Assembly (NCBI RefSeq): GCF_964355755.1
Contig: NC_092678.1
Coordinates: 22,362,365 to 22,426,364, forward strand
Length of the DNA stretch: 64,000 nt
Source: Antedon mediterranea
Taxonomy: Eukaryota > Echinodermata > Crinoidea > Comatulida > Antedonidae
Direction of reading: 5' to 3'
Shown: one piece after another, positions 10,181 through 53,400 of the stretch
How positions within the stretch are numbered: the stretch's first letter is position 1
How the letters are laid out: every line of letters starts with the position of its first letter
Translations under genes and position numbers: made by a program
Notes under the pieces: model-generated
Database searches by the model: none
The model's input: the letters and a program-made list of their open reading frames with translations, nothing else
What the model was told of the DNA's origin: nothing

Positions 10181-10500
10181 TTAAAGTTCTATCTACACTA
10201 TCAATATTTATGTGACCAACAAATCATGTGATGTGCCCATATATTGACATGATTGTGTCACCACTACCATATTTGGGCATATCACTACCATGTTTGGGCA
10301 TATAACTATCATATTTGGGCATATCACTACATATTTGGGCATATCACTACCGTATTTTGGCATATCACTACCATATTTGGGCATATCACTACCATATTTG
10401 GACATATCACTACCATATTTGGACATATCACTACCATATTTGGGCATATCACTACCATATTTGGGCACATCACTGCCGTATTTGTGTACATCACACTTCG
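10181..10500 (-). mobile_element. Short inverted-repeat element with about 11 tandem 21-bp core units
   Basis: The left end reads TCTACACTATCAA, with a decayed AAGTTCTA in front. After the CCCATATATTGACATGAT segment come about eleven copies of a 21-bp unit (GGGCATATCACTACCATATT, and variants) at 10262-10495. The right terminus is decayed or missing. This is the same unit, in opposite orientation, that fills the giant array at 45078-50528. Open frames of 87 to 113 codons here arise from the repeat. Confidence 0.85.
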
Positions 10501-11286
10501 AATGTATCAAACATGACACTATTTCCATTTCTTCACATGAAAAACACAAATGTACATTTTACTAGCCGATTACAAGTGTAATTACCATTCGTATATTGCT
10601 AAGTTTGTGCACTTAAAAAACCAGGTTTACATCTACCGGTATAAAATGTCTGTACTTATCCATTAATACTAAATCGTCGGGCTCCTCGGGCAAAAATAAC
10701 TTTAACGTAATGCTTTGACCTACTCAAATGATTCCATGTGTCTCTTCTTAGCGTATTTTCATTTGCTCGTCGATAAATCATTTTGGCTATGCTGTTTATC
10801 TTCGTGTATTTGGTTTTACAAAGTATTTTCTTTTTCTGATTTAAAATATATATGTATATAAAATTGGTTTTTTTTCGATGATATACAACATTTTTCAATG
10901 CTTTTAAATACAGTTGTAAAATACGTATTAAGAAATTTGTATTGAGATTGATTTCCAAATTTACAATACCAAACTGAATGGAAAAATGTCTACTCTAACT
11001 AGGAGCTTCAGTATCAATCCTTTTCTGTGAGGTTTAATAGTTATTTATTTATTTATTTTAGAGTAGTTTTTTGTCAAATTTTATTCATAGTAGCTCATAG
11101 TTTATATGGGAATTCAGGTATGCCACTATTGGCCAATTTCAATTTAATCATTATTTTAAACAAGATAATAGCACACCATAAAATTGTATATTATTATGTA
11201 TGCAATAGATGATATATCAAGCAGTCAAAGATTCTGGGTCTGATTCTTGGTTTGGGCGGCTGTTTCTCAATTTCAGATTTCCTCAC
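10501..11286. other. Intergenic, one possible minus-strand exon-like patch
   Basis: Complement of 10660-10790 reads MIYRRANENTLRRDTWNHLS and then KHYVKVIFARGARRFSING before a stop, a composition less AT-driven than its surroundings. I could not define splice sites, and it may be a decayed transposon piece. The rest shows nothing. Confidence 0.3.
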
Positions 11287-11920
11287 TTAAAGACCCCTTC
11301 CCTGCAATTTTGGACGTTTTTTGGAAAATAATACATATATATCACTTTAAAAACATTAAACCATGTCATTCCTTGTCTTAAATGTACGTTTTATGGTAAA
11401 TTATGATAAAAAGTGAGAAACAATGCACTACCTAAGTAGCTCGCGGCGATCGACCTCTCGTGGACGGTCTTAGGCCTAGCCTAGCTAGGCTTAGTTTTGT
11501 AGGCCTAGCTGGTAAACATCGGTAACGTACGAACATCGTACGCGAGCTATATACCTAGCCTGACATTGTATAGTTGCTGCATTAATTGTCTTTCTATTTT
11601 TGCCAGACTCCGTTGATACAAATTGGGGAAAACCCGGTATTTTCGCTGAAAAGTTAGGAGTCTTCCATTTGTTTTGGCCTCACGATCGATCGAAAAGTGG
11701 GCGAATTACAGGTGAAAAACAAAAATATCAATCCGCGCGCAATGCATTTTGGGATTTATAGCGGGCCGCTATAATTATTAGAATCGACTTATTTTTCACA
11801 TTTTTAACCGTTTAAAGACGAAAAAAGTTATCGCAATAGGACCATATAGTATTATTTTTACATTAAATATAGTTTGTGATCTTAAATTAGATCTAAAAAA
11901 CGTAGGGAATGGGGCTTTAA
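11287..11920. mobile_element. TTAA-flanked non-autonomous DNA element, 634 bp
   Basis: The left end is TTAAAGACCCCTTCCCTGC and the right end, read on the other strand, is TTAAAGCCCCATTCCCTACG, so terminal inverted repeats of about 18 bp begin in TTAA on both sides. TTAA target sites are typical of piggyBac and Kolobok elements. The interior has no coding frame and contains an AGGCCTAG-rich stretch at 11465-11515. The superfamily assignment is inferred from the target site only. Confidence 0.75.
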
Positions 11921-13246
11921 TCTTTACTGTTTACAAAGTAATTAATTCATTTCCAGAATATTACTAGGTGGTTTAGGGTTTATGATGAATGATGATATGT
12001 ACCAAATTAATTCCACAAGTATCATAATATACAATGCACAGAGTGTAGGATAGTCATATCCCTATCTTTGGTCATGGGACTAACTAATTATATTCCATGC
12101 TAAACCACATTTCCCATTAGTACAGCTACAGGCCTTTTGGCATTCCATACTGTCTAAATAATCATATACATACTTTTTCAATTATAAACCGTGTGGTATT
12201 CTTTAGCCAGATTGGCCCACTTATGTATGCTGGGTCGCTGCCATGTGGAGAGAATGTTGTAATTAGGAAATATTCTTATTAACAATTCTCATCCAATCTG
12301 ATGTTATTAGGCAATCAGTTGTTTCTAGTGGTCGCGTTTCATCCCCAGGGTTTGAAATAAATTCTTCGATTCATAGTCACAAATTGTACATAGCGTCCTA
12401 CATAGTGTTTTCATGTTTTATCGGCCGTATTTACGTGCATACTCTAAAACAGCTATCCACACAGCTGCCTGTGCAATTTTGCTACAAAATATTGTTAGTA
12501 ACCAATTCCATTCAATTTTAACGTTCTCCACTCCTCCCTCTGGGAAAAGCCTTCTTGCATTTTGTCGCCAATATCCCACAATGCAACATGGCACGTAAAC
12601 TTTTGCTTTGAATTTAATGAGGACACGAGGATTAACAACATGGTTGTTGCGAACGAATCTGTTTAATTAAAAGTTCGTTCTAATTCTGATAAAGACAATA
12701 TTACTGAAGCCCCAACCTAAAAATAGTCTTTAATTTGATAAGACACTTATAGTAGACCAACATTAAATTTCAAATTCTTGAGTTTAAGATTTTCTAAATT
12801 AGACTTAAGTAATTACCAGCAGGTTGTTAACCCTTGTCAATCCATCAATAACGCAAGTTAGTAACGCTTCTATTTTTTTTCCAAAATCGTTGAAGCATTG
12901 CTGATAATATTCGTAAACAATAGATTTTGTCTTTGTAGTTATGAATTGGAAATGTTGTTGGCATATTGCCAAGAATAAATTGCTGCACAAAATTATGGTA
13001 TATTAGCTGGTAATCATAAATTTCAAATAGCATAGCATATATGCATTATGATATCATTTCAATGTACAAACATAAAACTTTATGATATTATAATGTAATA
13101 TATATTTTAAAAACATTCTAAATATTAAATAGATATATTATTTGTTGTTTGTTTTTTAACTATTGTTCCCTTATCTATCATACATTGGTATGTGAGATGT
13201 TTAGCTGTTGGTGTGTATATACAAATTAAAACATTTATTAAAGAAC
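11921..13246. other. Intergenic, nothing recognised
   Basis: This is AT-rich spacer on both strands. Short open frames near 12413-12598 and 12805-13033 lack coding character and splice sites. Confidence 0.4.
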
Positions 13247-14336: not shown

Positions 14337-14346
14337 AGAACGACTA

Positions 14347-14450
14347 CGGATCTATGGAAAACCTAATTCCAAATTTCTTATAGTTCTTAAACATTTATAG
14401 GCACCATGGACCAATAGAAAACCTAATTCCAAATTTCCTATAGTTCCTAT
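14347..14450 (+). repeat. Two-copy tandem repeat, period about 61 bp
   Basis: The block GAAAACCTAATTCCAAATTT followed by C/TTATAGTTC occurs at about 14355-14386 and again at about 14417-14448, preceded by similar GGATCTAT/GGACCAAT sequence. It adjoins the right end of the transposon at 13247-14336. Confidence 0.75.
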
Positions 14451-14979: not shown

Positions 14980-15143
14980 TTAAAGCTCTGTCTACACTAT
15001 CAAGCTACTGTAGTTTGACACAAAAAAACGTGCCCAAAAATGGTAGTAATGTGCCCAAATATGGTAGTGATATGACATCATCATGTCCATATGGGCACAA
15101 CACATTTTTTTGTCACAAAGTTTGATAGTGTAGACAGGCTTAA
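14980..15143. mobile_element. Short inverted-repeat element (TCTACACTATCAAA family), two core units
   Basis: TTAAAGCTCTGTCTACACTA is on the left and TTTGATAGTGTAGACAGGCTTAA on the right, so the copy is intact with TTAA at both edges. Two adjacent core units (ATGGTAGTAATGTGCCCAA and ATGGTAGTGATATGACATC) precede the ATCATCATGTCC segment. It is the best copy for defining the family boundaries. Confidence 0.92.
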
Positions 15144-16439: not shown

Positions 16440-16560
16440 TTAAGTCCTGTCTACACTATCAAACTAGTGTGATGTGCCCAAATAATGGTATTGATATGAC
16501 ATCATCGTCCGTATATGGGCACATCATACTTTTGATGTTTTACAGTATATCAAGTTTTAT
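16440..16560. mobile_element. Short inverted-repeat element, 3' end eroded
   Basis: TTAAGTCCTGTCTACACTAT and AAACTAGTGTGATGTGCCCA match the left end of the family, followed by one core unit and GACATCATCGTCCGTATATG. The right terminus is only faintly visible (AGTATATCAAGTTT). Confidence 0.8.
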
Positions 16561-22535: not shown

Positions 22536-22734
22536 TCATTCTCACAAATTCCCTCATCTTATCGTTTCAAATGAATTAATTCATTTTTAGTATATCACCA
22601 GACACTGTAGTTTTATAGTATTAAGGTACTCTTATTTAGGATTGTTATATATTATTTCACATTTAGGCAATACCGCTAGATTTGTTGGGTTACAAAATAT
22701 ATATATATGTATGTATCACTTGCACTGATGAATG

Positions 22735-23283: not shown

Positions 23284-23802
23284 AAAAAAAACAACTTTTA
23301 TAATGACTCTTTACACCATAAAGGTATAGATATTATTATCATAATTAATATAATATCATCATCAGTATCATTATCAACATTTTCATCATTATCATCATGT
23401 CCACTTCATCTTTTTACAGTAGTAAAAATTATTATAATCATAATTTAGTAATGATTGAAATTTAAAAAACAACTTTATAATGACTCTCTACACTATAAAA
23501 GTATAGCAATTATTATCATAATTAATATATCATCATCAGTATCATTATCAACATTTTCATCATTATCATCATGTCCACTTCATCTTTTTACAGTAGTAAA
23601 AATTATTATAATCATAATTTAGTAATGATTGAAATTTAAAAAACAACTTTTATAATGACTCTCTACACTATAAAGGTATAGATATTATTATCATAATTAT
23701 CAGTATCATTATCAACATTGTCATCATTATCATCATGTCCACTTCATCTTTTTACAGTAGTAAAAATTATTATAATAATAATTTAGTAATGATTGAAATT
23801 TT
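23284..23802 (+). repeat. Three-copy tandem repeat, period about 178 bp
   Basis: Copies start at about 23284, 23464 and 23638 with AAAAAACAACTTT and end with TTAGTAATGATTGAAATTT. Each contains an ATC/TCA-rich core (ATCATTATCATCATGTCCAC). The copies are nearly identical apart from small gains and losses in the TCATCA runs, so the amplification is recent. Confidence 0.92.
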
Positions 23803-24285: not shown

Positions 24286-24405
24286 TTAAGCTCTGTCTAC
24301 ACTATCAAACTAGTTTGACATGGCCAAAATATGGTAGTGATATGACATCATCATGTTTCATAAATGTGCACATCACATGTCTTTATTACATAAAGTTTTA
24401 TAGAT
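24286..24405. mobile_element. Short inverted-repeat element (TCTACACTATCAAA family), right end eroded
   Basis: TTAAGCTCTGTCTACACTAT at the left edge and AAACTAGTTTGACATGGCC fit the family. One core unit and ATGACATCATCATGT follow. The right terminus has decayed to CATAAAGTTTTATAGATGTT. Confidence 0.85.
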
Positions 24406-26003
24406 GTTCTGAAAAGGTGAACCGAGAAATTCCAAATAAGGGATGAAGAGGGGGTGGGGGAGGAGGCTGTTCGGTACGTAGAATCTCTATTAAGGAAACA
24501 CCTTTGGAATTCAATACATTGTTTTTAAAGTTGATTGAAATTTTGATTGTTTTATAGTAAGATTTTTAAAAAATTTAGAGAGTATGTTTTTTTTTTTGCA
24601 GTATAGGAACATTGGTAAACATAATAATAATTTAATTTAAACACAGTAAAATAATTTAATATAGTTTAATTGTAGTCAATAAACTAGGACATTTATTGGT
24701 AATGGTACGATCTCCTTACCTTGATGAATCAAAATTTAGAGACCAAATCTCTTTTGTCCTTCTTTAATTAAGTAACCTTATTTGTGTGTTTTTCGTCATG
24801 CATATATTAAACAAAAATTTAGCGTAATAAATAATTTTTAATATATCATCAGTCAAAATATTAACAAAAATATTAATAACAAATATATAATGTACAGATA
24901 ATGGGAAAATAATTATTGATGTCTAGTAACTTAATATAGGTTATCCCTATAGATAATTAAAGAAATTGAAAGAGACCGATTCGTCATCATTTTGCGTTAA
25001 TCACACACAGACTAAGAGCACTCAGAGTAAGTGAAGATGCTTTGTTACGTGTCAAAGGTCAATATGCTCATCAATACACTAACAAAGAAGACGTTGGTAT
25101 TATTAGTATATTAATAGCACGCACTTGAACCACACCCATGTTGATTAATCAACGAGATGGGTTGATGACCGGTTAACGTGAGCGTCTATTGCGGGTATTT
25201 TCTTATAACTGATGCGATTCATTTTGGAATATAAATATATTTTCTTTGTTGACAATTTTTAAAGTAAAAATTATATTTTTTAATGTTATTTGATATCAAT
25301 AATCCTTCTGATAAAAACTTAAAATTTTAGATTCTCACAGTATCTATTTTGGAACATTTAATAATATGCTTTGATCCAACACAACCATAACCGACTCCTC
25401 GCGCTCTCATTTTCTTTAAGACCGACTAAAATTTAAATGTCCCAAATTTTGTGGGCTTAGTTAGTTATGTTTTAGAAGGCAATTTGACTTACATTGAAAA
25501 AAAATAACACACATAGTGTGTCATACCTATACTGCTGAATTAAAAAAAAATCAAAATACCTGCTGGTTACTTTTAAAAAGGAATTTAAATAAAAAGGCAA
25601 AAACTTGGGGAAATTGTCTAGGCTTAGGTGGTATTGTGCTATTATGGTAATCTGAACAAATCCCAATTTTTAATTTTCTCTCCATTACTGAAATCTTTTT
25701 TAATCACATAGATTTCTTGACTTGAAGTTCGCCCAGAAACAGGTTGACAGGAAGTGGTTCATCCCCTCTGGTGCCATCCCTAATCCCTATCTACTTTTAA
25801 TGACCACTGTGTTCTTTCAGTTAATAAACAGTAACAACAAGAATTGCTATAGTGGTTGTATTGACAAATATCTCCCTTAATTGTATTTCACTTAAGTCAA
25901 TACACATTAAGAATTTCCCTTGTATTCAGTTAGATAAGAACATTTTTAAATATCTAACACTGTTTTTTTCTTAAATGCAGCCGATTTTCGCTAGTGTATC
26001 CAT
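24406..26003. other. Intergenic, candidate control region at 24960-25200
   Basis: No gene recognised. The 24960-25200 interval combines TCAAAGGTCA (nuclear-receptor type), ACCACACCC (KLF type), the palindrome GTTGATTAATCAAC at 25140-25153 (HNF1-like) and ACCGGTTAAC (grainyhead-like) within about 130 bases. This is suggestive of an enhancer but rests on motif reading only. Confidence 0.3.
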
Positions 26004-29199: not shown

Positions 29200-29816
29200 C
29201 ATGTTGTACGTGCACTATAGTAAAAAAACACAACACAAATTTGTTTGAGTTTTAAAAATATTTTCTCAGTAAGTTGAAAGTGACTTTCATTTTATGTGAC
29301 TTAATCCCTTCTTTGTATGGCTTGATTGTTGATTTTTTTCATTCATCTTTCATTTGTATTTGTTTAATCTGCAAAGAAGGCTGCGGTAAATTCCAAGTAA
29401 ATTGTGTCACATTTTAAAATCTTTTTTTAAAAGAATATAATTAATTCTCAATTTTAAAGAAAACAAAATATCAAATGGCCATTTTAAAAATAATCATTTT
29501 AATCGTAATTTTTTAATTACAATTAAAACTTCATTGACCTTTTGAGTCTGTCAATTTTAAATGCTTTATTTATTCTTTATTTCAAAAGCTTTAAATATTG
29601 CAAAAGTTAGATATAATTTCCAAACTGTTGCGGGAAGATCACTGAAAATGATAATGCAAAAGATTAGGTTCAGGATTTTTTTTTTAGAATATTCATAGGC
29701 CGCTGGGCCTCACTTAAGTGAGATATTTTCCTTTAAATTGTATTGACTTAGATTTTTCTAAATTTTAAGTGTGTTTCCCTTAGCCCAAGTGTGAATATGG
29801 CCACTGATCTAAAAAA

Positions 29817-29950
29817 CCTAGATGCGCGACTGAAGGTACGTGCTTACTTGGACTCGCTTATGACTAGACTAAGTATGGCGTAACCTAGATGCGCGACTGG
29901 AGGTACGTGCTTACTTGGACTCGCTTATGACTAGACTAAGTATGGTGTGA
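29817..29950 (+). repeat. Near-perfect two-copy tandem repeat, 67-bp period
   Basis: Each copy starts with CCTAGATGCGCGACTG and ends with AGACTAAGTATGG(C/T)GT. The copies (29817-29883 and 29884-29950) differ at only a few bases. They are more GC-rich than the flanks. A recent duplication is likely. Confidence 0.92.
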
Positions 29951-31487: not shown

Positions 31488-34400
31488 GAACTAGACATGA
31501 AACTCGTCACTTTGACGAGTTAGTTATCCGCACGACAGATGCCACGTGCACGTCATACGTTAAAAACTATAATAAGAGGTGGTCCTGTATTTTCGCCTTG
31601 TATTATAATTATACAGTACACTGTGTATAAAAGGAGACATTAATTCTACATGATACAGAGGGCGGCAAACAACAATTTGCTCACATCAGAGACTATGCTG
31701 GTGTACATTGTACTACTGTATATTATATGACATATTAACTGAATTATGGGACCTGCCTTTAATTCAAATATTTAACATGATGATGTCATAAAAAAAAACA
31801 ACACAACGATAGCAATTTCTGAAGAAAATTATCTTAGCAACAACATATTAACGTGTAGAAGAAATTTGAATACGTAAAATGTTGGTGCGCGCACATTTAA
31901 ATGTGATGAACTATTACGCAAAATATGAAAATACGACTTTTTTTATTCAACTGGCAATATGATAACGTCACAACATCCGATTGGCAAAATGTTTACATGA
32001 ATTCGTATCTACAATCCTATAGCTTCCAGAAAACGTTTTAATCGTGATTATCACATTTTATTCTTACGAGCTATTACAGATTAAAATTTACTGTAAAGAT
32101 GAAATTAATGACCCACGTAATTAAAATTTTTAGGCATGATGACGTTATAAAAATGTAAATATTTTTTTCTCATGCTAAAGAAAGTTGATTGACCTAGACA
32201 ATATATAAATATAGGAGAAAAAGGAATACAGATAAGCGTGATGCGCTCCATTGAATGTGATGAGCAATAACGAAACAGACAAAAATCCTATATTTTACAT
32301 TCGTGTGGCCATACGATTACGTCACAATGTTTTTTTAGCCTTATCGATGCATGATCCGATATCTGCAACTCATCAACTTCTAGATTTTGTAATAAAAATA
32401 AACGGTTCACGGTTTACTTTAGAAACTATGACTGTTTAAAAAAAGACATTATTTTGATGATTTTTTAAGCTTTTTCATAAAAAACGCGCACAAATTGTCT
32501 AATTCAACGTGTTCGTATGGCGTTATTTAAACTGGAAAAGTTCTAAATTGTTTTCAAAATTACTAGGAAAGGCTTGAAAAATATAATTCAAGAGAAAAAA
32601 ATATGTTTTTATCGCTACGTGCGCACCGCGTGCGTAAAAAATTGCGCGCCCGTGGGAATTTTTGACATGCTCAAAATGACATGAAACGCGTAAAAAGTTG
32701 ATTAGAAATTAATTTTGCGCATTTTGAAATTTTAAATGCGCGTGCGCGCGTAACTTCTTGTGAAACATGCCATTTTTAATCCGTAGAAAGTTTGCCCCTG
32801 ATATGACTTAAATTTTGTCAAAGTGTCAATACTAAATGACTTTTGGTTTTTAATCTATGATCAATCATTGAAATTCATAAAATTGCGCGTAAGTCACGTT
32901 GCGCAACTATGACGTCATTCAAAAATAGGAGGTGCACAACTTCACGTAAATGCCCATATGTTGTCAAAGTTATGAAATGTTATGTTTACACATTTTAGAG
33001 AAACGCGACTCACAAAAAGGAAGGAAGGAAAGAAGAACTAGACATGAAACTCGTCACTTTGACGAGTTAGTTATCCGCACGACAAACGCCACGTGCACGT
33101 CATACGTTGGAATATTGCATTGCACACCGAAAAAGATTATGTCATTATGACCTGAACTGAAGAATATGATATGTTGTTAGTGCTGAATGCTGTATATTTT
33201 CTGTCATATAGTATACACAGTATAATCTGTATACATGTCACAAACAGTGTAAAATAGGTGAAATTACGGGACCCGTATTTTATTTTAATTTTCAAAAGGA
33301 AACGCGAAGGTACAGTAGTAATTTCGGAAGAAAATTATCTCAGCAACAACATATTAACGTTTAGAAGAAATTAGAATACGTGAAATATTAATGCGCGCTT
33401 TTTTAAATGTAATGAACTATGACGCAAAAGATGAAAATATGACTTTGTTTATTTAACTGGCCATATGATGACGTCACAACATCTGATTGGCGAAAAGTTC
33501 ACATGATTTCGTATCTACAATCCCATAGCTTCCTGAAAACGTTTTAATCGTGATTATCACATTTTATTCTTACGAGCTATAACAGATTAAAATTTACTGT
33601 AAAGATGAAATTAATGACGCTGTTAATTAAAATTTTTAGGCATGGTGACGTCATAAAAATTAAAATATTTTTAACTCATGCGTAAGATAGTTGATTGACC
33701 TAGACAATATTAAAATCTCAGAGAAAAAGGAATACAGATAGGCGTAATGCGCTCCATTGAATATGATGAGCAATAACGAAAGAGACAAAAATCCTATATT
33801 TTACATTCGTGTGGCCATACGATGACGTCACAATGTCCGGTTAGCCATATTGATTCATGATCCGATTTCTACAACTCATCAACTTCCAGAATATGTAATT
33901 AAAAAAAAGTTCACCTCGTTGTTTAGAATCTATGACTGTTTAAAAAAAGGCATAATTTTGACAAATTTTTTAACTTTTTCATCAAAAACGCACGTAAAGT
34001 ATCCAATTCAACGTGCCCGTATGACGTAATTGTAAGTCGAAATTGTTTTAAAATTGGTAAAATTACTATAAAAGGCTGGAAAAACATAATTCAATAAAAA
34101 AAAAATACTTTTAGCGCTACGTGCGCACCACGCGCATAAAATTGTTCGCGCACGTGGGAAATTTTGACATGGTCAAAATGTCATAATCAGCGTAGAAAGT
34201 TGATTAAAAATTAATTTTGCGCATTTTGAATTTTAAATGCGCGTGCGCGCGTAACTTTGTGTAAAACACGCAATTTTTTTTCCACAGAAAGTTAGCGCAT
34301 GATATAAATTAAAATTTTGCTAAGTTTCAATTTAAATTGTTATATGGTTTTAAATCTATGTTAAATACGCGAAATTCATAAAATCATGCGTAAGTCACGT

Positions 34401-34900
34401 TGCGCATTTCTGACGTCATTCACAATAGGAGGTGCACAACTTCACGTGAATGCCCATATGTTGACAAAGTTATGAAATGTTATGTTTACACGTTTTTGAG
34501 ATACGCGAGATACAAAAAGAGAGGAGAAATGCGCGTGCGCGCGTAACGTCTTGTAAAACATGGCATTTTTAATCCACAAAAAGTTTGCCCTTGATATGAC
34601 TTAAATTTTCACAAAGTGTCAAAACAAATTTATGCTTGGTTTTTAGTCTATGATCAATCATAAAAAATCATAAAATCGCACGTAAGTCACGTTGCGCAAC
34701 TCTGACGTCATTCAAAAATAGGAGGTGCACAACTTCACGTAAATGCCCATATGTTGACAAAGTTATGAAATGTTTAGTTTACAAGTTTTTGAGATACGTG
34801 AGGCACAAAAATGGAGGAGAAAGAAATAAGAAAAAAAAAAAAAAAAAGTAACAGGACGATTACAAGAAGTTATCCGCTACTAAGCGGATAACTAATAATA
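31488..34900 (+). repeat. Tandem array of a 1.55-kb non-coding unit (2.2 copies) with hairpin start and palindromic cap
   Basis: Copy one is 31488-33033, copy two 33034-34528, and a third partial copy covering only the 3' fifth is 34529-34810. Each full copy opens with GAACTAGACATGAAACTCGT and the hairpin AACTCGTC-ACTTT-GACGAGTT, then AGTTATCCGC. The array ends with hairpins built from the same GTTATCCGC motif. The units are rich in CpG-containing words (GCGCGTGCGCGCGTAAC) and have no long frame. Hairpin ends and tandem head-to-tail copies suggest a rolling-circle (Helitron-like) element, but no diagnostic ends were proved. Confidence 0.8.
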
Positions 34901-36843: not shown

Positions 36844-37097
36844 TACTTACACTATCAAACTTTATGTGATGATGTCATATCACTACCATATTTGAGCACA
36901 TCCCATTTTTTTGATTAAGCTCTATCTAACTATCAGATCATATTACTAGTTTGAAAAAGTGTGATGTGCCCAAATATGGTAGTAATAGGCCCAAATTATG
37001 GTAGTGATATGACATTATCATGTCCATATATATATCACATATTTTTTGTCACATAAAGTTTTGTCACATAAAGTTTGATAGTGTAGACAGAGTTTAA
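36844..37097. mobile_element. Two adjoining copies of the TCTACACTATCAAA family, one partial
   Basis: 36844-36910 is a truncated copy (ACACTATCAAACTTTATGTG, then one reversed core unit). 36914-37097 is a fuller copy running from TTAAGCTCTATCTA to TTTGATAGTGTAGACAGAGT with two core units. Within the second, the CACATAAAGTTT segment near the right end is duplicated. Confidence 0.85.
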
Positions 37098-37371: not shown

Positions 37372-38545
37372 AGTTTGTCGAACCTGGTAGTTTCTGTGAC
37401 AGCATCGATTATCTGATCACGAACCAATAGATGAGACTACAAATAATTCATGAAATTATATTAATAGTATCTATAGATTGTCTTGTTAATGATCAGGAAA
37501 TTTTACAATTTTTAGTATTGACCTAAAAAAACGCTTTTGTATTTTGCTATGATTGATCAATAACTCAATCTCATCTAAATATTAGCCTTGATATTACAAT
37601 ATTAGACCAACGGAAATACATCACTGTGGATGATTGAGTTACAATCCTACCTTCTAATTTAGTATAAATTTAGGTTAAATTGGTCAATTCCAATATGCTT
37701 AATGTGGCCAATCTAACCAAGTCTAGTCTAATTAAAGTTGGTTCCAATTGGATGTAATAGGAAGTAATTTGACCAATCATGACTTTATGAGTCATCCAAC
37801 TGTGGCTTGTGATTGGTCAACTCACTTTGGTTGCATCTATGTTTTTGCGTTGCGTTCAAATGGGAACCAAACTTAAAGCTCTGTCTACACTATCAAACTT
37901 TATGCGACAAAAAAATGTGATGTGCCCATATATGGACACGATGAAATCATATCAATACCATATTTGTGCATATCACTACCATATTTGGGCACATTTTTTG
38001 TCGAGTTTGATAATGTAGGCATAGCTTAACGCCTAAAAAAAATTGGATTAAGATTACAGCAATGACATGTTTAGATAAAAGAAATGAAAATCTTTAGATA
38101 AAAGAAAAAAAAAATAAATCTTGATATTTATTTAAAAAACATTGATGGAAGGGCAGACAACTGACAAGGACAATGTCATCTATGCCTCATGGTCTGACAG
38201 AAGTAAAGAACAATATTCTCTCCTCTATTATTACAATAATATTTGAATAATTATATAAATTAATTTACTTAAGATTGAGTTATTGATCACTCACAAAAAG
38301 CACCAGATCAATATTTTACTTATTAAAAGTTTGTCGAACCTGACAGAAAGTGTGACAGCATTGATTATCTGACACAGCATCGATAGAAGATGACAAAAAT
38401 AATTCACTAAGTGATATTAATAGTTTCTTTAGATTGTTTTGGTAATGATCTGGGATTTTTACAATATCGAGTATCGACCGGAATAAAAAAACGCTTTGTA
38501 TTTTGCTATGATCAATAACTCAATCTCATTAAAGTATTAGCCTTG
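37372..38545 (+). repeat. Direct repeat pair (37372-37590 and 38329-38545) around an inverted-repeat element
   Basis: The two copies, about 957 bases apart, share AGTTTGTCGAACCTG, GTGACAGCAT-GATTATCTGA, TTTTGTATTTTGCTATGAT, CAATAACTCAATCTCAT and TATTAGCCTTG in order. They have diverged by substitutions and small indels. The spacer contains the transposable copy at 37873-38029. A segmental duplication is the simplest reading. Confidence 0.85.
37873..38029. mobile_element. Short inverted-repeat element (TCTACACTATCAAA family), two reversed core units
   Basis: TTAAAGCTCTGTCTACACTA is on the left and GTTTGATAATGTAGGCATAG then CTTAA on the right, with TTAA at both edges. The core units read TATTTGTGCATATCACTACC and TATTTGGGCACA. 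Confidence 0.92.
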
Positions 38546-41416: not shown

Positions 41417-44400
41417 ATGGCGATAGGAAAGGAGGATAGAGGGCGCATTATACTGCCACCAATGCTGCTTCAGGAAATGGGAGAGGAGAGAAACGTAAAC
41501 AATGAAATAACAATAATAAATATGGCGGGTTATTCGGATGGTGATTTCTTAAAAGAAATGACAAACATTCAACGCCTAATACATGAGTGAGTTTATGACA
41601 ATTTATATTTAAATAAAACTTAATTAAAGCTTAGCTACCTTCTGACCTGTCAAATAGTCCAGTCGAATATATTTGTTTTAGTTAGGCCCCTACACTAGCC
41701 TATAAGGCTAGGTAGGCCTACTAGTACTAGAGCTAGGAGTTAGGCTAGTAGTAGTGACAGACAGTGAGTGAGTGTCAGCAGTAGTAGCGTGTCGTGTCAG
41801 TACAGTTCAGTAGGTCTAGCCTAGTCTCTAGGTAGTAGTATAGTAGGCCTAGCTAGTGCTAAGTGTGGTGACAGTGTGTAGACTAGGCCTATAGGCCTAG
41901 CCTAGCTAGGCTACTAGCAAGGCAAGCAAGGAGGCTAGTAAAAGTAATAGGCCGCGGCCTACTAGTACTACACTAGCTAGGACCAGGACAGGTACGTTAG
42001 TTAGTTAGGCCCTATCTATAGGCTAGCTAGCCTAGTAAAGTAGTAGGAGTATGCCTAGCTAGTAGGCTAGTAGTAGTAGCTAGCTAGCTACCTTAGTAGA
42101 GCTAGTCTACCTACTACATAAAGACTGTGTGGTGTGTAGTCTAGCTAGGCTATAGTAGTACTGTAGTACTGTATGTAGCTAGACTAGATAGGCTTAACTA
42201 ACTACTCTATTACTAATAGTAGTAGGCTCTAGCTAAGTAGCTAGCCTACTACTACTAGTATTAGGAAAGGCTTTTCCAACTAGAGCTACAGTAGGCCTAA
42301 TAATGATATTATTACTAATAGTCTAACACTACTAACTAGCGGCTCTGTCTACCTAGTCTATTCTAGTAAGTTCACCTACTAATTTGTTTGTTTTTTAAAA
42401 GGTTTCCAAATGATCAACAGGGATCAGGAATGTCTCCACACATTGACAAGTTTCTCGAGGACAGTATGAAAAGGACAAGAAACATTGAGAGTTGTGAGAA
42501 ACTGGTGGAGCAATTGAAGATGGAAATTGAAAGTTTAGAGTCTGAACTCGACTCACAGAACGAGTCACTTCTCGGATTCTCAAACACTGAGCTTGATGCC
42601 ATTCAGTAAGTTTGCCATGAGACGATATGTTACAATAACTGCAGTGTTCCTCTTATTACTATACACACCAAAACTATTACAAACCTCCCTATAAATACCT
42701 CGATAGTATAATAATACTGTATATAGTTTATCAAGGATTTTTGTGTTGTCTTAGAGGTGGGTGTTGCTTACTTTTAGTACCGAGACGTTTCTTGTTTGGG
42801 TGCTATCATGTTCAAATTAGACTGGGTGGAAGTCCTTAAAATAACTTTAGGCTTGGTCACCCACTTCTCCCAGTAAATTTTGAAGGTGTATGCTTTCACC
42901 CATTCCCCTTAGTTTTGCCCAATAACCTTTGAATATAAGGAAATGTTATGGATTAATGTAAAAGAAATTATGGTTTAATTCACAGAGAAATGTTTAAAGT
43001 TGTAGAAGATAAGCATGGTTTTAGACCAGTGAATGTACAGCTGAAACCACATGATGTAAGTAGCCAAGACCTTTTGGTAGCTAAAATGAAGTTATGAACT
43101 ACTTTGATATCTATTTTTGATAGTACTATAATAATAATTATTAGCACTGTTGAAAAAAACCTGGATCTGCCCCTGCACTGACTACCTATAATAAATATCA
43201 TAATAAAATTATTTAAAAAATTACATAAAATTTTGAAATTACACACAATAAATAATAATAATTTATAAATTAGTAGTTAAATAGTAGAGGCTATTTCCAA
43301 CAAAACACTAACTTCTAAACAACTATATTATACTGTATAATCCCATTGTTGAACAAATGAATGTTTTTTTAACTTTGAACAAACCTGTCAAAACTTTACC
43401 TTCAAATGAGAGTCATTATGTTCCAAGCATATCGCCTCATTGCGTATTAAATATTTTTCTCTCAGAATTCTCTTATGGCATCTCTTACTGGCATTCATTT
43501 TGATGATTTTACCCGGAAATCAATTGGTCAAGAGGACGGCAGCATCATTATTAGGCAACACCTTCAAGGTCATTGCTACAATCAGGAATTTGATGTCGTG
43601 TTTGATGTAGCTGAAGTACAGGTAAGAGACCATAGAGATGATAAAAATAAAGTGTACAAGATGACAAGATTTTCTAGTTCTGTATACACTATCAAACTAG
43701 TTTGACAAAAAAAAGTGTGATATGCCATAAATATGGTAGTGATATGACATTATCATGTCCATATATGGGCATCACATTTTTGTAACACAAAGTGTGATAG
43801 TGTGGACAGAGCTTTAATCCTGTATTGCAAATGTAGGATGTTAAAACTTGTACCCCAACACACATCCTAGATAAATAAACTATTATGACTAGCCCCCTCT
43901 TTTTATAAAGCTATCTTTCAACAACATCTTTGACAGTGCCCTCTATTTTAAGTAATATAAATTTTGAATTGACTTTTTGCCATTCAATTAAAATTCTTGC
44001 AAATATCTTAAAGTCTCTCCAAGAATTCCCAAAGTTATTTAGTATTTGGAATTAGAAAAATCCTGTTGTAACACAAAATAAAGTAGGCTTATGCTTATTT
44101 TCACAATCTTCACTCAATTAAAACGATAATTGCTTAATTTAACTACAATTTATGGAAAACCTTGAAAATTATTAATTAGCTCGCTATACCTGTGCTTAAT
44201 AAGGTGTTAATTACTTATTGAACTTAAAATAATTGGAATGACATTTACGTTGACTAAATTTGGAAACATAGACTGTCCAGGGTTATTAATTGCCTAATAT
44301 GGTGTTTATCACTTATATAGTATTATTAACATGTTTTATGCTCTGTTGACAACAATAGCATTTTATATCTTTTATTATATAACACCTAAATAAATTCCTG

Positions 44401-47400
44401 TCATTTGATTGGACGAATGTGGGTCACATGGCGTGTAATAGTACGCACTATTCAACGATCGTTAAATAGTACTTTTATAATAGTTTGATTTGGTACTAGG
44501 TTAGTGTCAATGTAATGTAGTGTAAATAGTGTAGTGTTGCCAATACAGTATTTTGGTTTATATATATGCTATAGGCTTTCAATTGATATATATGGTGAAG
44601 TCCAACTATTTATTTTAATTTTAGTAGAATTCCTTATTAAAGAGACAATTTCAGTTGAAAATAAAAATCACTATTGTCAAATAGAGTAGAGATTCTACTC
44701 TATGAAGTCATTACAAATTGCATTCTCAAGTTTTAAAATTAAAAATCTTTCTGAAACTATTTTTAGTCGATTACAAGAATACCAGGGCATGCTTCAACGA
44801 CCTCCGAAACTGAAATCATTGTCACGCAACTGAAAATAAAAGTTGACCCAAAAATTGAAGAACATCTCAAGAAATTTATAGAGAAATGTGAAAGTAGGCA
44901 GAACCTGCAACCATTCTTTCAAACATACTCACAATACGCCGAATGGTATGACCACCGACAGAGGACCTACGAACATTTTAAGGTATAGTTTGTCTTTTTC
45001 ATGTCTTCATATCAAACTACCCAAATTAAACGGTCTGTCTACGCTATCAAACTAGTTTGACATAAAAAGTGTGATGTGCCCAGGTATGGTAGTGATATGC
45101 CCAGAAATTGTAGTGATATGCCCAAATGTGGTAGTGATATGCCCAAATGTAGTAGTGATATGCCCAAATGTGGTAGTGATATGCCCAAATGTGGTAGTGA
45201 TATGCCCAAATGTGGTAGTGATATGCCCAAATGTAGTAGTGATATGCCTAAATGTAGTAGTGATATGCCCAAATGTGGTAGTGATATGCCCAAATGTAGT
45301 AGTGATATGCCCAAATGTAGTAGTGATATGCCCAAATGTAGTAGTGATATGCCTAAATGTAGTAGTGATATGCCCAAATGTGGTAGTGATATGCCCAAAT
45401 GTGGTAGTGATATGCCCAAATGTGGTAGTGATATGCCCAAATGTAGTAGTGATATGCCTAAATGTAGTAGTGATATGCCCAAATGTGGTAGTGATATGCC
45501 CAAATGTAGTAGTGATATGCCCAAATGTAGTAGTGATATGCCCAAATGTAGTAGTGATATGCCCAAATGTAGTAGTGATATGCCCAAATGTAGTAGTGAT
45601 ATGCCTAAATGTAGTAGTGATATGCCCAAATGTGGTAGTGATATGCCCAAATGTAGTAGTGATATGCCCAAATGTAGTAGTGATATGCCCAAATGTAGTA
45701 GTGATATGCCCAAATGTAGTAGTGATATGCCCAAATGTGGTAGTGATATGCCCAAATGTGGTAGTGATATGCCCAAATGTGGTAGTGATATGCCCAAATG
45801 TGGTAGTGATATGCCTAAATGTGGTAGTGATATGCCCAAATGTAGTAGTGATATGCCCAAATGTAGTAGTGATATGCCCAAATGTAGTAGTGATATGCCC
45901 AAATGTGGTAGTGATATGCCCAAATGTGGTAGTGATATGCCCAAATGTGGTAGTGATATGCTCAAATGTAGTAGTGATATGCCCAAATGTAGTAGTGATA
46001 TGCCCAAATGTAGTAGTGATATGCCCAAATGTGGTAGTGATATGCCCAAATGTAGTAGTGATATGCCCAAATGTAGTAGTGATATGCCTAAATGTAGTAG
46101 TGATATGCCCAAATGTGGTAGTGATATGCCCAAATGTAGTAGTGATATGCCCAAATGTAGTAGTGATATGCCCAAATGTAGTAGTGATATGCCCAAATGT
46201 AGTAGTGATATGCCCAAATGTGGTAGTGATATGCCCAAATGTGGTAGTGATATGCCCAAATGTGGTAGTGATATGCCCAAATGTGGTAGTGATATGCCTA
46301 AATGTGGTAGTGATATGCCCAAATGTGGTAGTGATATGCCTAAATGTGGTAGTGATATGCCCAAATGTAGTAGTGATATGCCCTAATGTAGTAGTGATAT
46401 GCCCAAATGTAGTAGTGATATGCCCAAATGTAGTAGTGATATGCCCAAATGTGGTAGTGATATGCCCAAATGTGGTAGTGATATGCCCAAATGTGGTAGT
46501 GATATGCCCAAATGTGGTAGTGATATGCCCAAATGTAGTAGTGATATGCCCAAATGTAGTAGTGATATGCCCAAATGTAGTAGTGATATGCCCTAATGTA
46601 GTAGTGATATGCCCAAATGTGGTAGTGATATGCCCAAATGTGGTAGTGATATGCCCAAATGTGGTAGTGATATGCCCAAATGTAGTAGTGATATGCCCTA
46701 ATGTAGTAGTGATATGCCCAAATGTAGTAGTGATATGCCCAAATGTAGTAGTGATATGCCTAAATGTAGTAGTGATATGCCCAAATGTAGTAGTGATATG
46801 CCCAAATGTGGTAGTGATATGCCTAAATGTGGTAGTGATATGCCCAAATGTAGTAGTGATATGCCCAAATGTGGTAGTGATATGCCCAAATGTGGTAGTG
46901 ATATGCCCAAATGTGGTAGTGATATGCCCAAATGTAGTAGTGATATGCCCAAATGTAGTAGTGATATGCCCAAATGTAGTAGTGATATGCCCTAATGTAG
47001 TAGTGATATGCCCAAATGTGGTAGTGATATGCCCAAATGTGGTAGTGATATGCCCAAATGTGGTAGTGATATGCCTAAATGTGGTAGTGATATGCCCAAA
47101 TGTGGTAGTGATATGCCCAAATGTGGTAGTGATATGCCCAAATGTGGTAGTGATATGCCCAAATGTGGTAGTGATATGCCCAAATGTAGTAGTGATATGC
47201 CCAAATGTAGTAGTGATATGCCTAAATGTGGTAGTGATATGCCCAAATGTGGTAGTGATATGCCCAAATGTGGTAGTGATATGCCCAAATGTAGTAGTGA
47301 TATGCCCAAATGTAGTAGTGATATGCCCAAATGTAGTAGTGATATGCCCAAATGTAGTAGTGATATGCCCAAATGTAGTAGTGATATGCCCAAATGTGGT

Positions 47401-50400
47401 AGTGATATGCCCAAATGTGGTAGTGATATGCCCAAATGTGGTAGTGATATGCCTAAATGTGGTAGTGATATGCCTAAATGTGGTAGTGATATGCCTAAAT
47501 GTGGTAGTGATATGCCCAAATGTAGTAGTGATATGCCCAAATGTAGTAGTGATATGCCCAAATGTAGTAGTGATATGCCCAAATGTAGTAGTGATATGCC
47601 CAAATGTGGTAGTGATATGCCCAAATGTGGTAGTGATATGCCTAAATGTGGTAGTGATATGCCTAAATGTGGTAGTGATATGCCCAAATGTAGTAGTGAT
47701 ATGCCCTAATGTAGTAGTGATATGCCCAAATGTAGTAGTGATATGCCCAAATGTAGTAGTGATATGCCCAAATGTGGTAGTGATATGCCCAAATGTGGTA
47801 GTGATATGCCCAAATGTGGTAGTGATATGCCCAAATGTGGTAGTGATATGCCCAAATGTGGTAGTGATATGCCCAAATGTGGTAGTGATATGCCCAAATG
47901 TGGTAGTGATATGCCCTAATGTGGTAGTGATATGCCCAAATGTGGTAGTGATATGCCCAAATGTGGTAGTGATATGCCCAAATGTGGTAGTGATATGCCT
48001 AAATGTGGTAGTGATATGCCCAAATGTGGTAGTGATATGCCCAAATGTGGTAGTGATATGCCCAAATGTGGTAGTGATATGCCTAAATGTGGTAGTGATA
48101 TGCCCAAATGTGGTAGTGATATGCCCAAATGTGGTAGTGATATGCCCAAATGTGGTAGTGATATGCCCAAATGTGGTAGTGATATGCCCAAATGTGGTAG
48201 TGATATGCCCAAATGTGGTAGTGATATGCCCAAATGTGGTAGTGATATGCCTAAATGTGGTAGTGATATGCCCAAATGTGGTAGTGATATGCCCAAATGT
48301 GGTAGTGATATGCCCAAATGTGGTAGTGATATGCCCAAATGTGGTAGTGATATGCCCAAATGTGGTAGTGATATGCCCAAATGTAGTAGTGATATGCCCA
48401 AATGTGGTAGTGATATGCCTAAATGTGGTAGTGATATGCCTAAATGTAGTAGTGATATACCCAAATGTGGTAGTGATATGCCTAAATGTGGTAGTGATAT
48501 GCCCAAATGTAGTAGTGATATGCCCAAATGTAGTAGTGATATGCCCAAATGTAGTAGTGATATGCCCAAATGTAGTAGTGATATGCCCAAATGTGGTAGT
48601 GATATGCCTAAATGTGGTAGTGATATGCCCAAATGTGGTAGTGATATGCCCAAATGTGGTAGTGATATGCCTAAATGTGGTAGTGATATGCCTAAATGTA
48701 GTAGTGATATGCCCAAATGTGGTAGTGATATGCCCAAATGTGGTAGTGATATGCCTAAATGTGGTAGTGATATGCCCAAATGTAGTAGTGATATGCCCAA
48801 ATGTGGTAGTGATATGCCTAAATGTGGTAGTGATATGCCCAAATGTGGTAGTGATATGCCTAAATGTGGTAGTGATATGCCCAAATGTGGTAGTGATATG
48901 CCCAAATGTGGTAGTGATATGCCCAAATGTGGTAGTGATATGCCCAAATGTGGTAGTGATATGCCTAAATGTGGTAGTGATATGCCCAAATGTGGTAGTG
49001 ATATGCCTAAATGTGGTAGTGATATGCCCAAATGTGGTAGTGATATGCCTAAATGTGGTAGTGATATGCCCAAATGTAGTAGTGATATGCCCAAATGTGG
49101 TAGTGATATGCCCAAATGTGGTAGTGATATGCCTAAATGTGGTAGTGATATGCCCAAATGTAGTAGTGATATGCCCAAATGTAGTAGTGATATGCCCAAA
49201 TGTAGTAGTGATATGCCTAAATGTAGTAGTGATATGCCTAAATGTAGTAGTGATATGCCCAAATGTAGTAGTGATATGCCCAAATGTGGTAGTGATATGC
49301 CTAAATGTGGTAGTGATATGCCCAAATGTAGTAGTGATATGCCCAAATGTAGTAGTGATATGCCCAAATGTAGTAGTGATATGCCCTAATGTAGTAGTGA
49401 TATGCCCAAATGTAGTAGTGATATGCCCAAATGTGGTAGTGATATGCCCAAATGTGGTAGTGATATGCCCAAATGTGGTAGTGATATGCCCAAATGTGGT
49501 AGTGATATGCCCAAATGTAGTAGTGATATGCCCAAATGTAGTAGTGATATGCCCAAATGTGGTAGTGATATGCCCAAATGTGGTAGTGATATGCCCAAAT
49601 GTGGTAGTGATATGCCCAAATGTGGTAGTGATATGCCCAAATGTGGTAGTGATATGCCCAAATGTGGTAGTGATATGCCCAAATGTAGTAGTGATATGCC
49701 CTAATGTAGTAGTGATATGCCCAAATGTAGTAGTGATATGCCCAAATGTAGTAGTGATATGCCCAAATGTAGTAGTGATATGCCCAAATGTGGTAGTGAT
49801 ATGCCCAAATGTGGTAGTGATATGCCCAAATGTGGTAGTGATATGCCTAAATGTGGTAGTGATATGCCCAAATGTGGTAGTGATATGCCCAAATGTGGTA
49901 GTGATATGCCCAAATGTGGTAGTGGTATGCCTAAATGTGGTAGTGATATGCCCAAATGTGGTAGTGATATGCCCAAATGTGGTAGTGATATGCCCAAATG
50001 TGGTAGTGATATGCCCAAATGTGGTAGTGATATGCCTAAATGTGGTAGTGATATGCCCAAATGTGGTAGTGATATGCCCAAATGTGGTAGTGATATGCCC
50101 AAATGTGGTAGTGATATGCCTAAATGTGGTAGTGATATGCCCAAATGTGGTAGTGATATGCCCAAATGTGGTAGTGATATGCCCAAATGTGGTAGTGATA
50201 TGCCCAAATGTAGTAGTGATATGCCCAAATGTGGTAGTGATATGCCCAAATGTGGTAGTGATATGCCCAAATGTAGTAGTGATATGCCCTAATGTGGTAG
50301 TGATATGCCTAAATGTGGTAGTGATATGCCCAAATGTAGTAGTGATATGCCCAAATGTAGTAGTGATATGCCCAAATGTAGTAGTGATATGCCCAAATAT

Positions 50401-53400
50401 GGTAGTGATATGCCTAAGATATGCCCAAATATAGTAGTGATATGCCCAAATATGGTAATGATATGCCTAAATGTGGTAGTGATATGCCCAAATATTGTAG
50501 TGACATGCCCACATATGGTAGTGGTATGACATGTCCAATATAGGCACATCACATTTTTTTGTCACATAAAGTTTGATAGTGTAAACAGAGCTTTATTATG
50601 AAAACTATATAAACATATACCACCAAACAAAAATTTTAAATTCGTTTGACATATCTGAATCTTAATTCCTTATTCTTTTTATGTCGACATCAATGACAAT
50701 AAAAAAGTTTAAATATTTGTATGTTTGACCTGTTGTCAGTTTATCATTCTCAACCCATTTTTCTTCTGCCTGTTAACTCCTAAATTTATAAATCAAACTG
50801 ACAGCTTTTGATATTTTCTTCGCCCATCCCAAAAATATTTTACCAACGGAGGCTCCATGAAAAATGAATTCGCCCATTTTTTCACTAGCAGCTGTCCATG
50901 ATGACAGAATAAAGAGGGAGAATTCAAAATAGGCTACCCTTCTTTAAAACTGTAACTGTATTATTGATACTGGAGTCAAATTTAGGAATGTAACTCTTTC
51001 ATTTCTGTGTTTTTTACCCCCCCTTCCCCAGAGAAAACTCAATGGTATTTTTAAGCAAGATCAGAGGGGATTGTCATAAAGCATTATTTCTATTTAATAA
51101 CCTAAGAGTTAGATAATTAAATGTTTTGACATTTTTAAACAGTTTAATTTCTAAACGGTTATAGATTTTGTTGCTATGGGTGACTTTAAACACTTCCCAA
51201 ATTAGAGAGACCCCCACCCACACCCTTCTCTAAAGCAAGATAGTTTTTTGAAATCCACATCACCCTGAAAACCTCTAATTCTAACTGATTTAAAAACTCC
51301 AAAATTCATCAGCTCAAATGAAGCATTCAGTCCAGAATCATGTTTACTAAATTCAATTTTCAGGCCAATTATTTTAGGAATTCAATGAATTATGGTATTT
51401 TGATATTTGTATGATTTTTTTAAAAAGTTCTGCTCCAGTGAAATTTTTGGATTAACCTGTTTTGATCATGTGACCAGCTGATGAGCCTACCACCTGCCTA
51501 ATTCCCCCCTATCTCGACTCGTAAACAGGTCATCTTAGATCCAAAAACCCTTGGTTGAAATGTTTGAGAACAGATTTACAGATTTCCTCCTATAAAATTT
51601 GTCTACAATATCAAACTAGATTGACAAAAAAGTGTGATGTGCCTAAATATGGTAGTGCTATGCCCAAATATGGTAGTGCTATGCCCAAATAAGGTAGTAA
51701 TATGCCCAAGTATGGTAGTAATATGCCCAAGTATGGTAGTAATATGCCTAAATATGGTAGTGATATGTCATCATCATGTCTATATATGTATGGTACATCA
51801 CATTTTTTGTCACATAAACTTTGATAGTGTAGACAGAGCTTAACAGTGTGTGAAAGCATTTAGTATGACAGCATTCTCCTGTTTTTTTTCCCTTCCCATA
51901 TTGATTTACCATTTGAAACATTCAATAGTACGTCTCAATATAAAATTAAATTACATTTAAACTACATGATAAAACATTTACTGTCTCTTGTTTGATATAT
52001 CTTCTTTTTGTCTGCTCTGCTCAGTAAAAAGATATGATTATTACTGCTCACTGTCTGTGTTCCTGTGGTTTGAATATAACTCTCATGAGATCTGCCTATA
52101 TTTAGTAAAATAATTGCAAATTGTACAAACCATGAAAGTCGTTTTTAGTCTGACTTTGGAAGAATGTTTTGTCTATTATATCTGTTAAAAAAAAAAGTTG
52201 GTAACAGTCAATTTAAAACATGGAATTTTTAAAATAAATATTAATTTTAGGTTTTTTTGTTAGATTATAAAAAAAGTAATTTATTAACTGCAAAGCATGT
52301 AATGGTATTAAACTGACATTCCAATACATTACTTAGTTTTATGGAAAAAAAAAATTTGAGGCGTTTGTAATATTAATAGGTAGTTTTTCGAACTTTGTGT
52401 AGGCAGGGGCGTAGGCTATTTGACAACTTATGTCATAAATTAAAGTTTAAATGCAAAGACAAACAAAAAATGAATAAATTAACTTTAAAAGGTCGTCACC
52501 TAATTCACTTATGACATCTTTTAGTGTATTGTTAGTAACAAAAATACCTAAAATTTGCCAATGTGAGTGACTTATGGTACCTGGAGACTTGGACTGTGGG
52601 TAGCTTACTGTCATTTTATGGAAATATATGATACAAGTACTTGGTAACATGTTTTAGTAATTAATTGAAAAATGTAAAGGTGGACATGGCTTGACCACTA
52701 GTGAACAAATCAAGTTTAATTTGACCACAAGTAAAGCAATACCATTTACACATTGGTTGTATTCTATCTGCCAGAATAATATTAAAATACTCTATTTATT
52801 TAGTCCGATGCTGTTTCATGGGCCCAGCTTCCCCTTTAAATTGTTAATATTACAATGCAAAGATAAGACATGATTAGTTTAAAGCTCTGTCTACACTATC
52901 AAACTTTATGTGACAAAAAATGTGATGTGCCCATATATGGACAACCCATATTTGGGTACATCACAATTTTGTTGACAAACTAGTTTGATAGTGTAGACAG
53001 AGCTTTGGTTCAGAACCTAATTTTACAATTTATAGGCCTTGAAGGCCCCCTTTTTCAAAATCGTGGAATCACCACTGCATGTGAGGTGAACAAATATTGA
53101 TTTTTTACATACAGTTGTAGAGAACCTTTCTTTAGCCCACTATTTAGAGTAAACTTATAATGAGTGGAAATATAATACATTATAAAACACTAATGCCAAA
53201 CCATATAATTGGACACCCATATTCATGTGACACGACTTTCCTATATTTTAATTGAACACATTATTGGATCCTAAACGTGTCCCCTTTAGCCACAACACAC
53301 TTTTTTAATAAGGTTCTCTATTTTATTGTACTCATACCATACAAACCTAGTGGTGTTAGGGTTGTAGACTGATTGAATATAGTGGCACTTGATAGGAATG

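What the first reader, a model, noticed from the sequence alone, without database searches (positions are those of the whole stretch)
10181..51843. A transposable element family caught at successive stages of becoming a satellite
Copies of one short inverted-repeat family carry about 1 (9155, 16440, 24286, 43676, 62341), 2 (8192, 14980, 37873, 54527), 6 (51593), 11 (10181) or 258 (45026) copies of the same 21-bp internal unit. The ends stay the same. This is direct evidence that tandem arrays are seeded inside mobile copies, which can disperse array seeds through the genome.
Basis: seen in the sequence. Interest (0 to 1): 0.75.

Follow-up and report, generated by a model that had tools for sequence, protein, structure and literature searches.

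The report
Tandem arrays growing inside hairpin transposons
A very abundant short hairpin-shaped mobile element carries a 21-base piece that is usually present once or twice but in some copies has multiplied in place, up to about 259 times, so this genome shows how a scattered transposon can seed satellite-like DNA; the principle is already known from other species.

Summary
The window holds 14 copies or fragments of one ~140-bp, almost perfectly palindromic MITE-like element; its 21-bp unit occurs about 1, 2, 6, 11 and 259 times. The host genome has 26,638 matches to the inner terminal repeat, none in the reversed control. With fixed anchors, gap windows for 1-2, 3-4, 5-6 and 7-8 units give 1577, 102, 22 and 15 hits, some of the longer ones not arrays. 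Among the first 100 listed, 2-unit copies outnumber 1-unit copies 72 to 28, so the tandem seed itself is a mobile form. From three units on, growth is local: unit 3 shares private variants with unit 2 of its own copy (34 letters; permutation mean 8.8, maximum 21), and a locus duplicated with its flanks carries 43 versus 24 units. Of 42 array clusters, 22 have both element arms beside them, 15 one, 5 none. Seeding inside mobile copies is supported; "always bounded by the termini" and an even gradation are not. The family also makes arrays from its ends (42, 92 bp) and its left half (82-87 bp). The principle is known (Tetris, Xenopus MITEs, BrickBuilt).

The parts
8192..8336 (+). element copy, 2 units; left end decayed
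9155..9281 (-). element copy, 1 unit, both TIRs
10181..10518 (-). element copy with about 11 units; only the right arm (10185-10259) recognised
14980..15143 (+). element copy, 2 units, both TIRs; second unit with G at position 6
16440..16533 (+). element copy, 1 unit; right arm truncated
24286..24407 (+). element copy, 1 unit; right end truncated
37873..38028 (-). element copy, 2 units, both TIRs
43676..43815 (+). element copy, 1 unit, both TIRs
45031..45070 (+). left arm bounding the long array (TIR plus A-rich spacer)
45071..50520 (+). array of 259 units of 21 bp; own consensus GTGATATGCCCAAATGTGGTA, 119 of 259 units identical to it; one phase break near the right end
50521..50595 (+). right arm bounding the long array
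51593..51843 (+). element copy with 6 units, both TIRs
54527..54647 (-). element copy, 2-3 units, right arm shortened
62341..62473 (+). element copy, 1 unit

Best explanation
This is a non-autonomous hairpin (fold-back) MITE that moves as a 1-unit or a 2-unit form and in which the second unit is a seed for in-place satellite growth. The 1-unit element is a near-perfect ~140-bp palindrome. Its 21-bp unit begins with GTGATGTG and is followed by GTGATATG, an imperfect 8-bp direct repeat (7 of 8 letters) 21 bp apart near the hairpin apex. Misalignment of that repeat during replication or repair duplicates the 21 bp (inferred); it has left two mobile 2-unit lineages, with A or G at position 6 of unit 2 (shown as counts; two separate duplications are inferred). 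These forms were spread by transposition to more than a thousand places (copies at many positions with unrelated sampled flanks are shown; the transposase is not identified). In a minority of copies unit 2 was then re-duplicated in place, and unequal exchange or slippage enlarged and homogenised the array (local duplication and in-place length change shown; unequal exchange inferred). Long arrays can lose one or both arms and remain as orphan satellite arrays (arm loss shown, order inferred).
For: Hairpin. Copy number. Unit numbers at fixed anchors: 1577 / 102 / 22 / 15 hits for windows of 1-2 / 3-4 / 5-6 / 7-8 units; by match length 28 of the 100 rows listed have 1 unit and 72 about 2; of 99 rows, 77 have 3-unit and 22 have 4-unit lengths. 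Two 2-unit lineages: exact 55-mer with A6 at 85 places, with G6 at 22 places; two arrays are built of G6 units (L064 127 of 136, L096 13 of 13). Local growth: U2-U3 share 34 non-consensus letters against permutation mean 8.8, max 21 in 5000; U1-U3 share 6 against 4.5 (74 of 99 rows parsed). In-place length change: L065 and L073, 14 kb apart, with flanks that align strongly on both sides, 43 and 24 units; CCA-type units 14 versus 3. Array-specific units: mean difference within arrays 1.16, between 2.46 (42 arrays of 8 or more units). Arms beside arrays: 22 both, 15 one, 5 none of 42 clusters. Eighteen 3-4-unit copies fetched with flanks show no related left flanks (best pair score 31, shuffled best 30).
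Against: The 1-to-2 direction is inferred from the hairpin and from the two lineages; deletion of 2 to 1 is not excluded. G6 could be a conversion of A6 rather than a second duplication, and a longer G6 array would also match the 2-unit pattern. Only 10 of 42 arrays have a within-array distance smaller than their smallest between-array distance, so many arrays are not distinctive. Arrays on different contigs, W45 (C9) and L063 (C5), share three rare unit types, which pure in-place growth from the family consensus does not predict. Target-site duplication and transposase are not proven. One assembly: no alleles, and possible assembly error in array length cannot be tested.
Confidence: 0.78

Rival explanations
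1. Multi-unit copies (3 or more units) are themselves mobile: an expanded master copy transposed and each array is a daughter.
For: Nine 3-4-unit copies (L105-L113), which I fetched because they share CTC-type second and third units, lie at unrelated left flanks; W45 and L063 on different contigs share three rare unit types; half-element dimers with the same junction (up to 2 mismatches) sit at six loci with unrelated left flanks.
Against: Unit 3 tracks unit 2 of its own copy across many different variants; several large arrays have private consensus units; CTC-type second units are already present among 2-unit copies, so they need no mobile 3-unit form. The order of unit types is not shared between W45 and L063 beyond shuffles (longest run 13, shuffled maximum 15).
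Confidence: 0.2
2. The satellite came first: a pre-existing 21-bp satellite was captured between the arms of a MITE and the 1- and 2-unit copies are contracted remnants.
For: Arrays without arms exist: 5 of 42 clusters, one of them (L086) with no arm remnant at all.
Against: Unit 1 is part of the palindrome stem of the 1-unit element and array units match that stem segment; at fixed anchors 1-2-unit hits (1577) exceed the 3-8-unit hits (139) about elevenfold; 37 of 42 array clusters keep an arm.
Confidence: 0.05
3. Array sharing between loci is due to ectopic gene conversion or re-insertion of circular array DNA rather than transposition.
For: W45 and L063 share a variant library without shared order or flanks; L063 has a left arm but no right arm.
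Against: Only one such unlinked pair with three shared rare types among the 42 arrays; the shared variants are single steps from the shared consensus and could be parallel.
Confidence: 0.2

Closest known systems
Tetris fold-back transposon / TIR-220 satellite of Drosophila virilis (PMC4079207; abstract and two discussion sections read)
   Same: Palindromic non-autonomous DNA element with an internal tandem repeat that varies in number, duplication of the second internal unit (alleles with 3 versus 4 units), and arrays of up to 66 copies said to originate inside the element.
   Different: About 220-bp repeats in the TIRs; here a 21-bp unit on one arm near the apex, and a mobile 2-unit form that is commoner than the 1-unit form among the copies sampled.
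MITE-borne tandem repeats of Xenopus: Xmix/Xstir and miDNA4 (named in passages and references of the review PMC9659126; the original papers were not read)
   Same: Satellite monomer born inside a MITE and amplified to arrays; the review describes monomer birth, amplification and homogenisation.
   Different: Not comparable here: no sequence of those elements was available to me.
BrickBuilt MITE of Porphyromonas gingivalis (PMC4596501; abstract and outline seen)
   Same: Inverted-repeat ends around a tandem repeat of a 23-nt unit, at many places.
   Different: A bacterial element with 19 copies in one strain; no kilobase arrays in the abstract.
Cg_HINE Helentrons of the Pacific oyster (PMC7492417; abstract and outline seen)
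   Same: Mobile elements carry central satellite-like repeats and spread them.
   Different: Helentron superfamily; the abstract describes flanking modules around central repeats, not a hairpin of this kind.

Membership tests
MITE | short, terminal inverted repeats | tested here: met
   typed consensus ~140 bp, near-perfect palindrome; 42 TIR pairs less than 480 bp apart among the loci and window scanned
MITE | high copy number at unrelated sites | tested here: met
   26,638 inner-TIR matches, control 0 (both ends of one element and TIR arrays such as L003 count several times); unrelated left flanks in 18 sampled copies
MITE | target-site duplication | tested here: inconclusive
   TA beside both ends in 33 of 42 short TIR pairs, but no letter-by-letter dependence between flanks in the 54 pairs, which include mispaired ends; no empty site examined
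MITE | related autonomous element | not tested
   no transposase search was made
PIF/Harbinger | 3-bp TWA target-site duplication with matching middle base (definition recalled) | tested here: not met
   middle base not correlated between flanks; 54 pairs, some mispaired, so the test is weak
Tc1/mariner | TA target-site duplication (definition recalled) | tested here: inconclusive
   TA at both ends in 33 of 42 short pairs; transposase unknown
satellite DNA | long homogenised head-to-tail arrays | tested here: met
   259, 180 and 136 units, mean 0.66, 0.29 and 0.74 differences from own consensus
satellite DNA | heterochromatic or centromeric location | not testable with these tools
   only a distance-to-contig-end measure was possible

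The most novel reading that the evidence does not exclude
One palindromic MITE family acts as a general generator of tandem arrays: besides the 21-bp core it has seeded arrays of TIR plus flanking DNA (42 and 92 bp) and of its left half (82-87 bp), in the core and half-element cases through a dimer that can be spread by transposition before it grows in place. The palindrome, not the unit sequence, would be the cause.
Probability: 0.35. Interest if true: 0.62.

Novelty: new member of a known kind. Interest (0 to 1): 0.45.

Why it matters
Where satellites come from is usually reconstructed from end products. Here one genome holds 1-, 2-, 3- to 6-unit copies and arrays up to 259 units of one family, with a built-in marker (position 6 of unit 2) for the first duplication and private variants for the later ones. 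That makes it possible to count how often a second unit arises, how often a dispersed 2-unit seed escapes to three or more units, and how often arrays outlive the transposon that carried them.

Tried and rejected
TWA (Harbinger-type) target duplication: not supported, flank letters independent in 54 pairs, some of them mispaired. Enrichment of arrays at contig ends beyond that of young copies: not found; exact 1-unit, exact 2-unit and 3-4-unit copies and arrays are all distal-biased to a similar degree (median relative distance 0.20, 0.22, 0.24, 0.25; 2-unit versus arrays p=0.16). The sets: the 100 listed of 538 one-unit hits (list cut at C9), all 85 exact 2-unit places, 99 of 102 hits (including a few that are not arrays), 39 array places. 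Shared unit order between W45 and L063: not above shuffles. Frequent nested self-insertion at the apex as the source of the half-element dimers: not supported; a gapped exact search found 9 left-arm junctions, 8 of them the same kind of junction on C3 and one other on C11. A paper holding the TIR or unit strings: none in the held library (six strings). Organism name: not identified. No structure prediction and no viral or prokaryote collection was used.

Full report
The thing itself. The window (C9:22362365-22426364 of an unnamed 354-Mb genome in 18 contigs) contains a short inverted-repeat family. The typed consensus of about 140 bp folds as a single DNA hairpin at -55.1 kcal/mol, against a shuffle mean of -13.1 (sd 2.7, z -15.4). 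The left arm reads AGCTCTGTCTACACTATCAAACTAGTTTGACAAAAAAAGT, then the unit GTGATGTGCCCAAATATGGTA, then the seam GTGATATGACATC, then a right arm ending in the inverted TIR. Unit 1 lies in the stem; in the folded 2-unit core fragment the extra unit lies in the apical region, outside the main stem.

The observation. Two further places were missed (36848-37092, 52883-53004). The copy at 10181 shows only one arm, and three others have a decayed or truncated end, so 'the ends stay the same' is not general.

Genome-wide abundance. The inner TIR (19 letters, up to 1 mismatch) has 13,239 forward and 13,399 reverse matches; the reversed control has none. This counts ends: both ends of one element can match, decayed copies do not, and TIR-containing arrays such as L003 add many. 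The number of copies is therefore only known to be in the thousands.

Distribution of unit number. With the same two anchors (19 and 13 exact letters) and four gap windows the counts are 1577 (1-2 units), 102 (3-4), 22 (5-6) and 15 (7-8). By match length, 28 of the 100 rows listed are 1-unit and 72 about 2-unit; in 99 rows, 77 have 3-unit and 22 have 4-unit lengths, a few of them not arrays. Of the 22 rows, about 10 are 5-unit and 3-4 are 6-unit arrays, 4 are half-element arrays and the rest are not clear arrays; of 15 rows about 5 are arrays (my reading of lengths and first 80 letters). An unbiased sample of 58 TIR sites on C1 (L005-L062; script) likewise shows mostly 1-2 units, with a few of 3-5 (for example L008, L011, L053). 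So the series is graded, but as two dominant mobile forms plus a steep tail reaching 259.

Where the second unit came from. GTGATGTG at the start of unit 1 and GTGATATG at the seam are an 8-bp repeat with one mismatch, 21 bp apart: a plausible misalignment site. A junction after the mismatch gives a second unit with A at position 6, a junction before it gives G. In 3-4-unit copies position 6 is G in unit 1 (66 of 74), A in unit 2 (70 of 74) and A in unit 3 (72 of 74). Exact 2-unit matches number 85 with A6 and 22 with G6. Of the 152 places within one mismatch of the G6 form, 22 are exact, 85 are the exact A6 form and 45 are others. Twenty-two exact G6 copies with a cloud of their own are more than I expect from single A-to-G changes of the A6 form, so I read G6 as a second 2-unit lineage. 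L064 and L096 are arrays of G6 units (127 of 136, 13 of 13), so both kinds have grown arrays. Conversion between lineages is not excluded.

Growth beyond two units is local. In 74 parsed copies, unit 3 and unit 2 of the same copy share 34 non-consensus letters; permuting copies gives mean 8.8, maximum 21 in 5000. Unit 1 and unit 3 share 6, mean 4.5. Eighteen 3-4-unit copies fetched with flanks (of 102; nine of them chosen for CTC-type units) have unrelated left flanks (best pair score 31, best shuffled 30). L065 and L073, 14 kb apart, have flanks that align strongly on both sides, that is, one locus was duplicated, yet they hold 43 and 24 units; a marker unit stands fifth in both, and the CCA-type units number 14 and 3. 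L077 and L081 hold further local duplicates with 12 and 19, and 12 and 8 units. Across 42 arrays of eight or more units, units differ by 1.16 letters within and 2.46 between arrays; in only 10 of 42 is the within value below the smallest between value.

Are arrays bounded by the termini? I took the 38 other array loci that a search with 1.3 kb of the long array returned (the best 40 of 3173 first-look candidates are scored, so this is a selection), plus the long array itself; these make 42 clusters of four or more units (not quite the same 42 as). Both arms are adjacent in 22, one in 15, none in 5. The five are the two copies of the duplicated locus L077, the first part of the compound locus L081, L092, whose right flank scores just under the threshold (24 against 27), and L086, which shows no arm at all. 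The same scoring at 835 random window positions outside the listed copies gave at least one arm at 8. So the 21-bp arrays come from the element, but arms can be lost.

Sharing between loci. The two largest of these arrays, W45 (C9) and L063 (C5), share three rare unit types, the only unlinked pair to share three; their order of types is not shared beyond shuffles and L063 lacks a right arm. This suggests transfer of array DNA between loci, or parallel change at favoured positions; I do not decide.

Other arrays from the same family. L003 (C1) is a 39-copy array of a 42-bp unit made of 11 bp of flank, the TIR and 8 bp more, ending in a deleted element. L004 with L101 and L102 (C1) is a 92-bp TIR-plus-flank array of about 4.9 kb. 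L103 and L104 (C3) are arrays of the left half of the element, 83 and 87 bp. The half-element junction (up to 3 mismatches asked, 2 at most found) occurs at six loci, five on C3 and one on C5, with unrelated left flanks (best score 24, best shuffled 22) and 4, 5, 3, 2, 2, 2 halves; in L103, L104, L123 and L124 the halves of one locus share their own variants, while in L125 and L126 they do not clearly, by eye. Nearly the same junction at six places with different flanks is best read as a dispersed dimer that then grew in place, parallel to the 21-bp case.

Mechanism, with status. Shown: palindrome, copy number, two abundant forms, two kinds of 2-unit copy as counts, local growth, in-place length change, arm loss. 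Inferred: misalignment at the 7-of-8 repeat, promoted by the hairpin; transposition by an unidentified transposase; unequal exchange as the main enlarger. Not shown: target-site duplication (TA beside both ends in 33 of 42 short TIR pairs; no dependence between flanks) and autonomous partner (not searched).

Known or new. Tetris in Drosophila virilis shows the same logic, including a 3-versus-4-unit pair of alleles explained by duplication of the second unit, and arrays of up to 66 copies (PMC4079207, sections read). A review lists Xenopus Xmix/Xstir and miDNA4 and others as MITE-born satellites (PMC9659126, passages). BrickBuilt (PMC4596501, abstract) and Cg_HINE (PMC7492417, abstract) are further cases. 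Five literature searches were run; none of the six sequence strings occurs in the held library. So this is a new member of a known kind, with unusually many intermediates in one genome.

Noticed in passing
window 44767-54917: The long array and the 6-unit copy lie between pieces of a CENP-P-like gene: the exon at 44767-44985 matches Pfam CENP-P (E 1.3e-11, profile 31-86), the piece at 54744-54917 weakly (E 0.012, profile 116-140, below the cut-off). A satellite-like array thus probably sits in an intron of a centromere-protein gene.
   Followed up: partly
window 45052-50466: Because 21 is seven codons, the array is open in several frames (up to 1804 aa); these look like artefacts that a gene finder could report as proteins.
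   Followed up: no
window 254-1646 (+): Two pieces of a dual-specificity phosphatase gene (Pfam DSPc, E 2.3e-12 and 2.6e-26).
   Followed up: no
window 23286-23801, 29815-29945, 34235-34822, 57523-57805: Other tandem duplications of 174, 67, 292 and 151 bp.
   Followed up: no
L003 256-1885; L004, L101 3457-4051, L102 1-1912: Arrays whose unit contains the element's TIR plus flanking DNA (42 and 92 bp, 97-98% matches).
   Followed up: partly
L103, L104, L123, L124, L125, L126: Left-half dimers and arrays with nearly the same junction at six loci.
   Followed up: partly
G000 C5:8332140-8332464: Three G6-type 2-unit copies in the same orientation, starts 143 and 127 bp apart, perhaps whole elements in tandem.
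   Followed up: no
L066 (C7:2368050-2370400): A 69-unit array with blocks of 22- and 24-bp spacing, that is, several periods in one array.
   Followed up: no
G000 C1-C11: Exact-consensus (young) copies and arrays alike lie nearer contig ends than uniform.
   Followed up: partly
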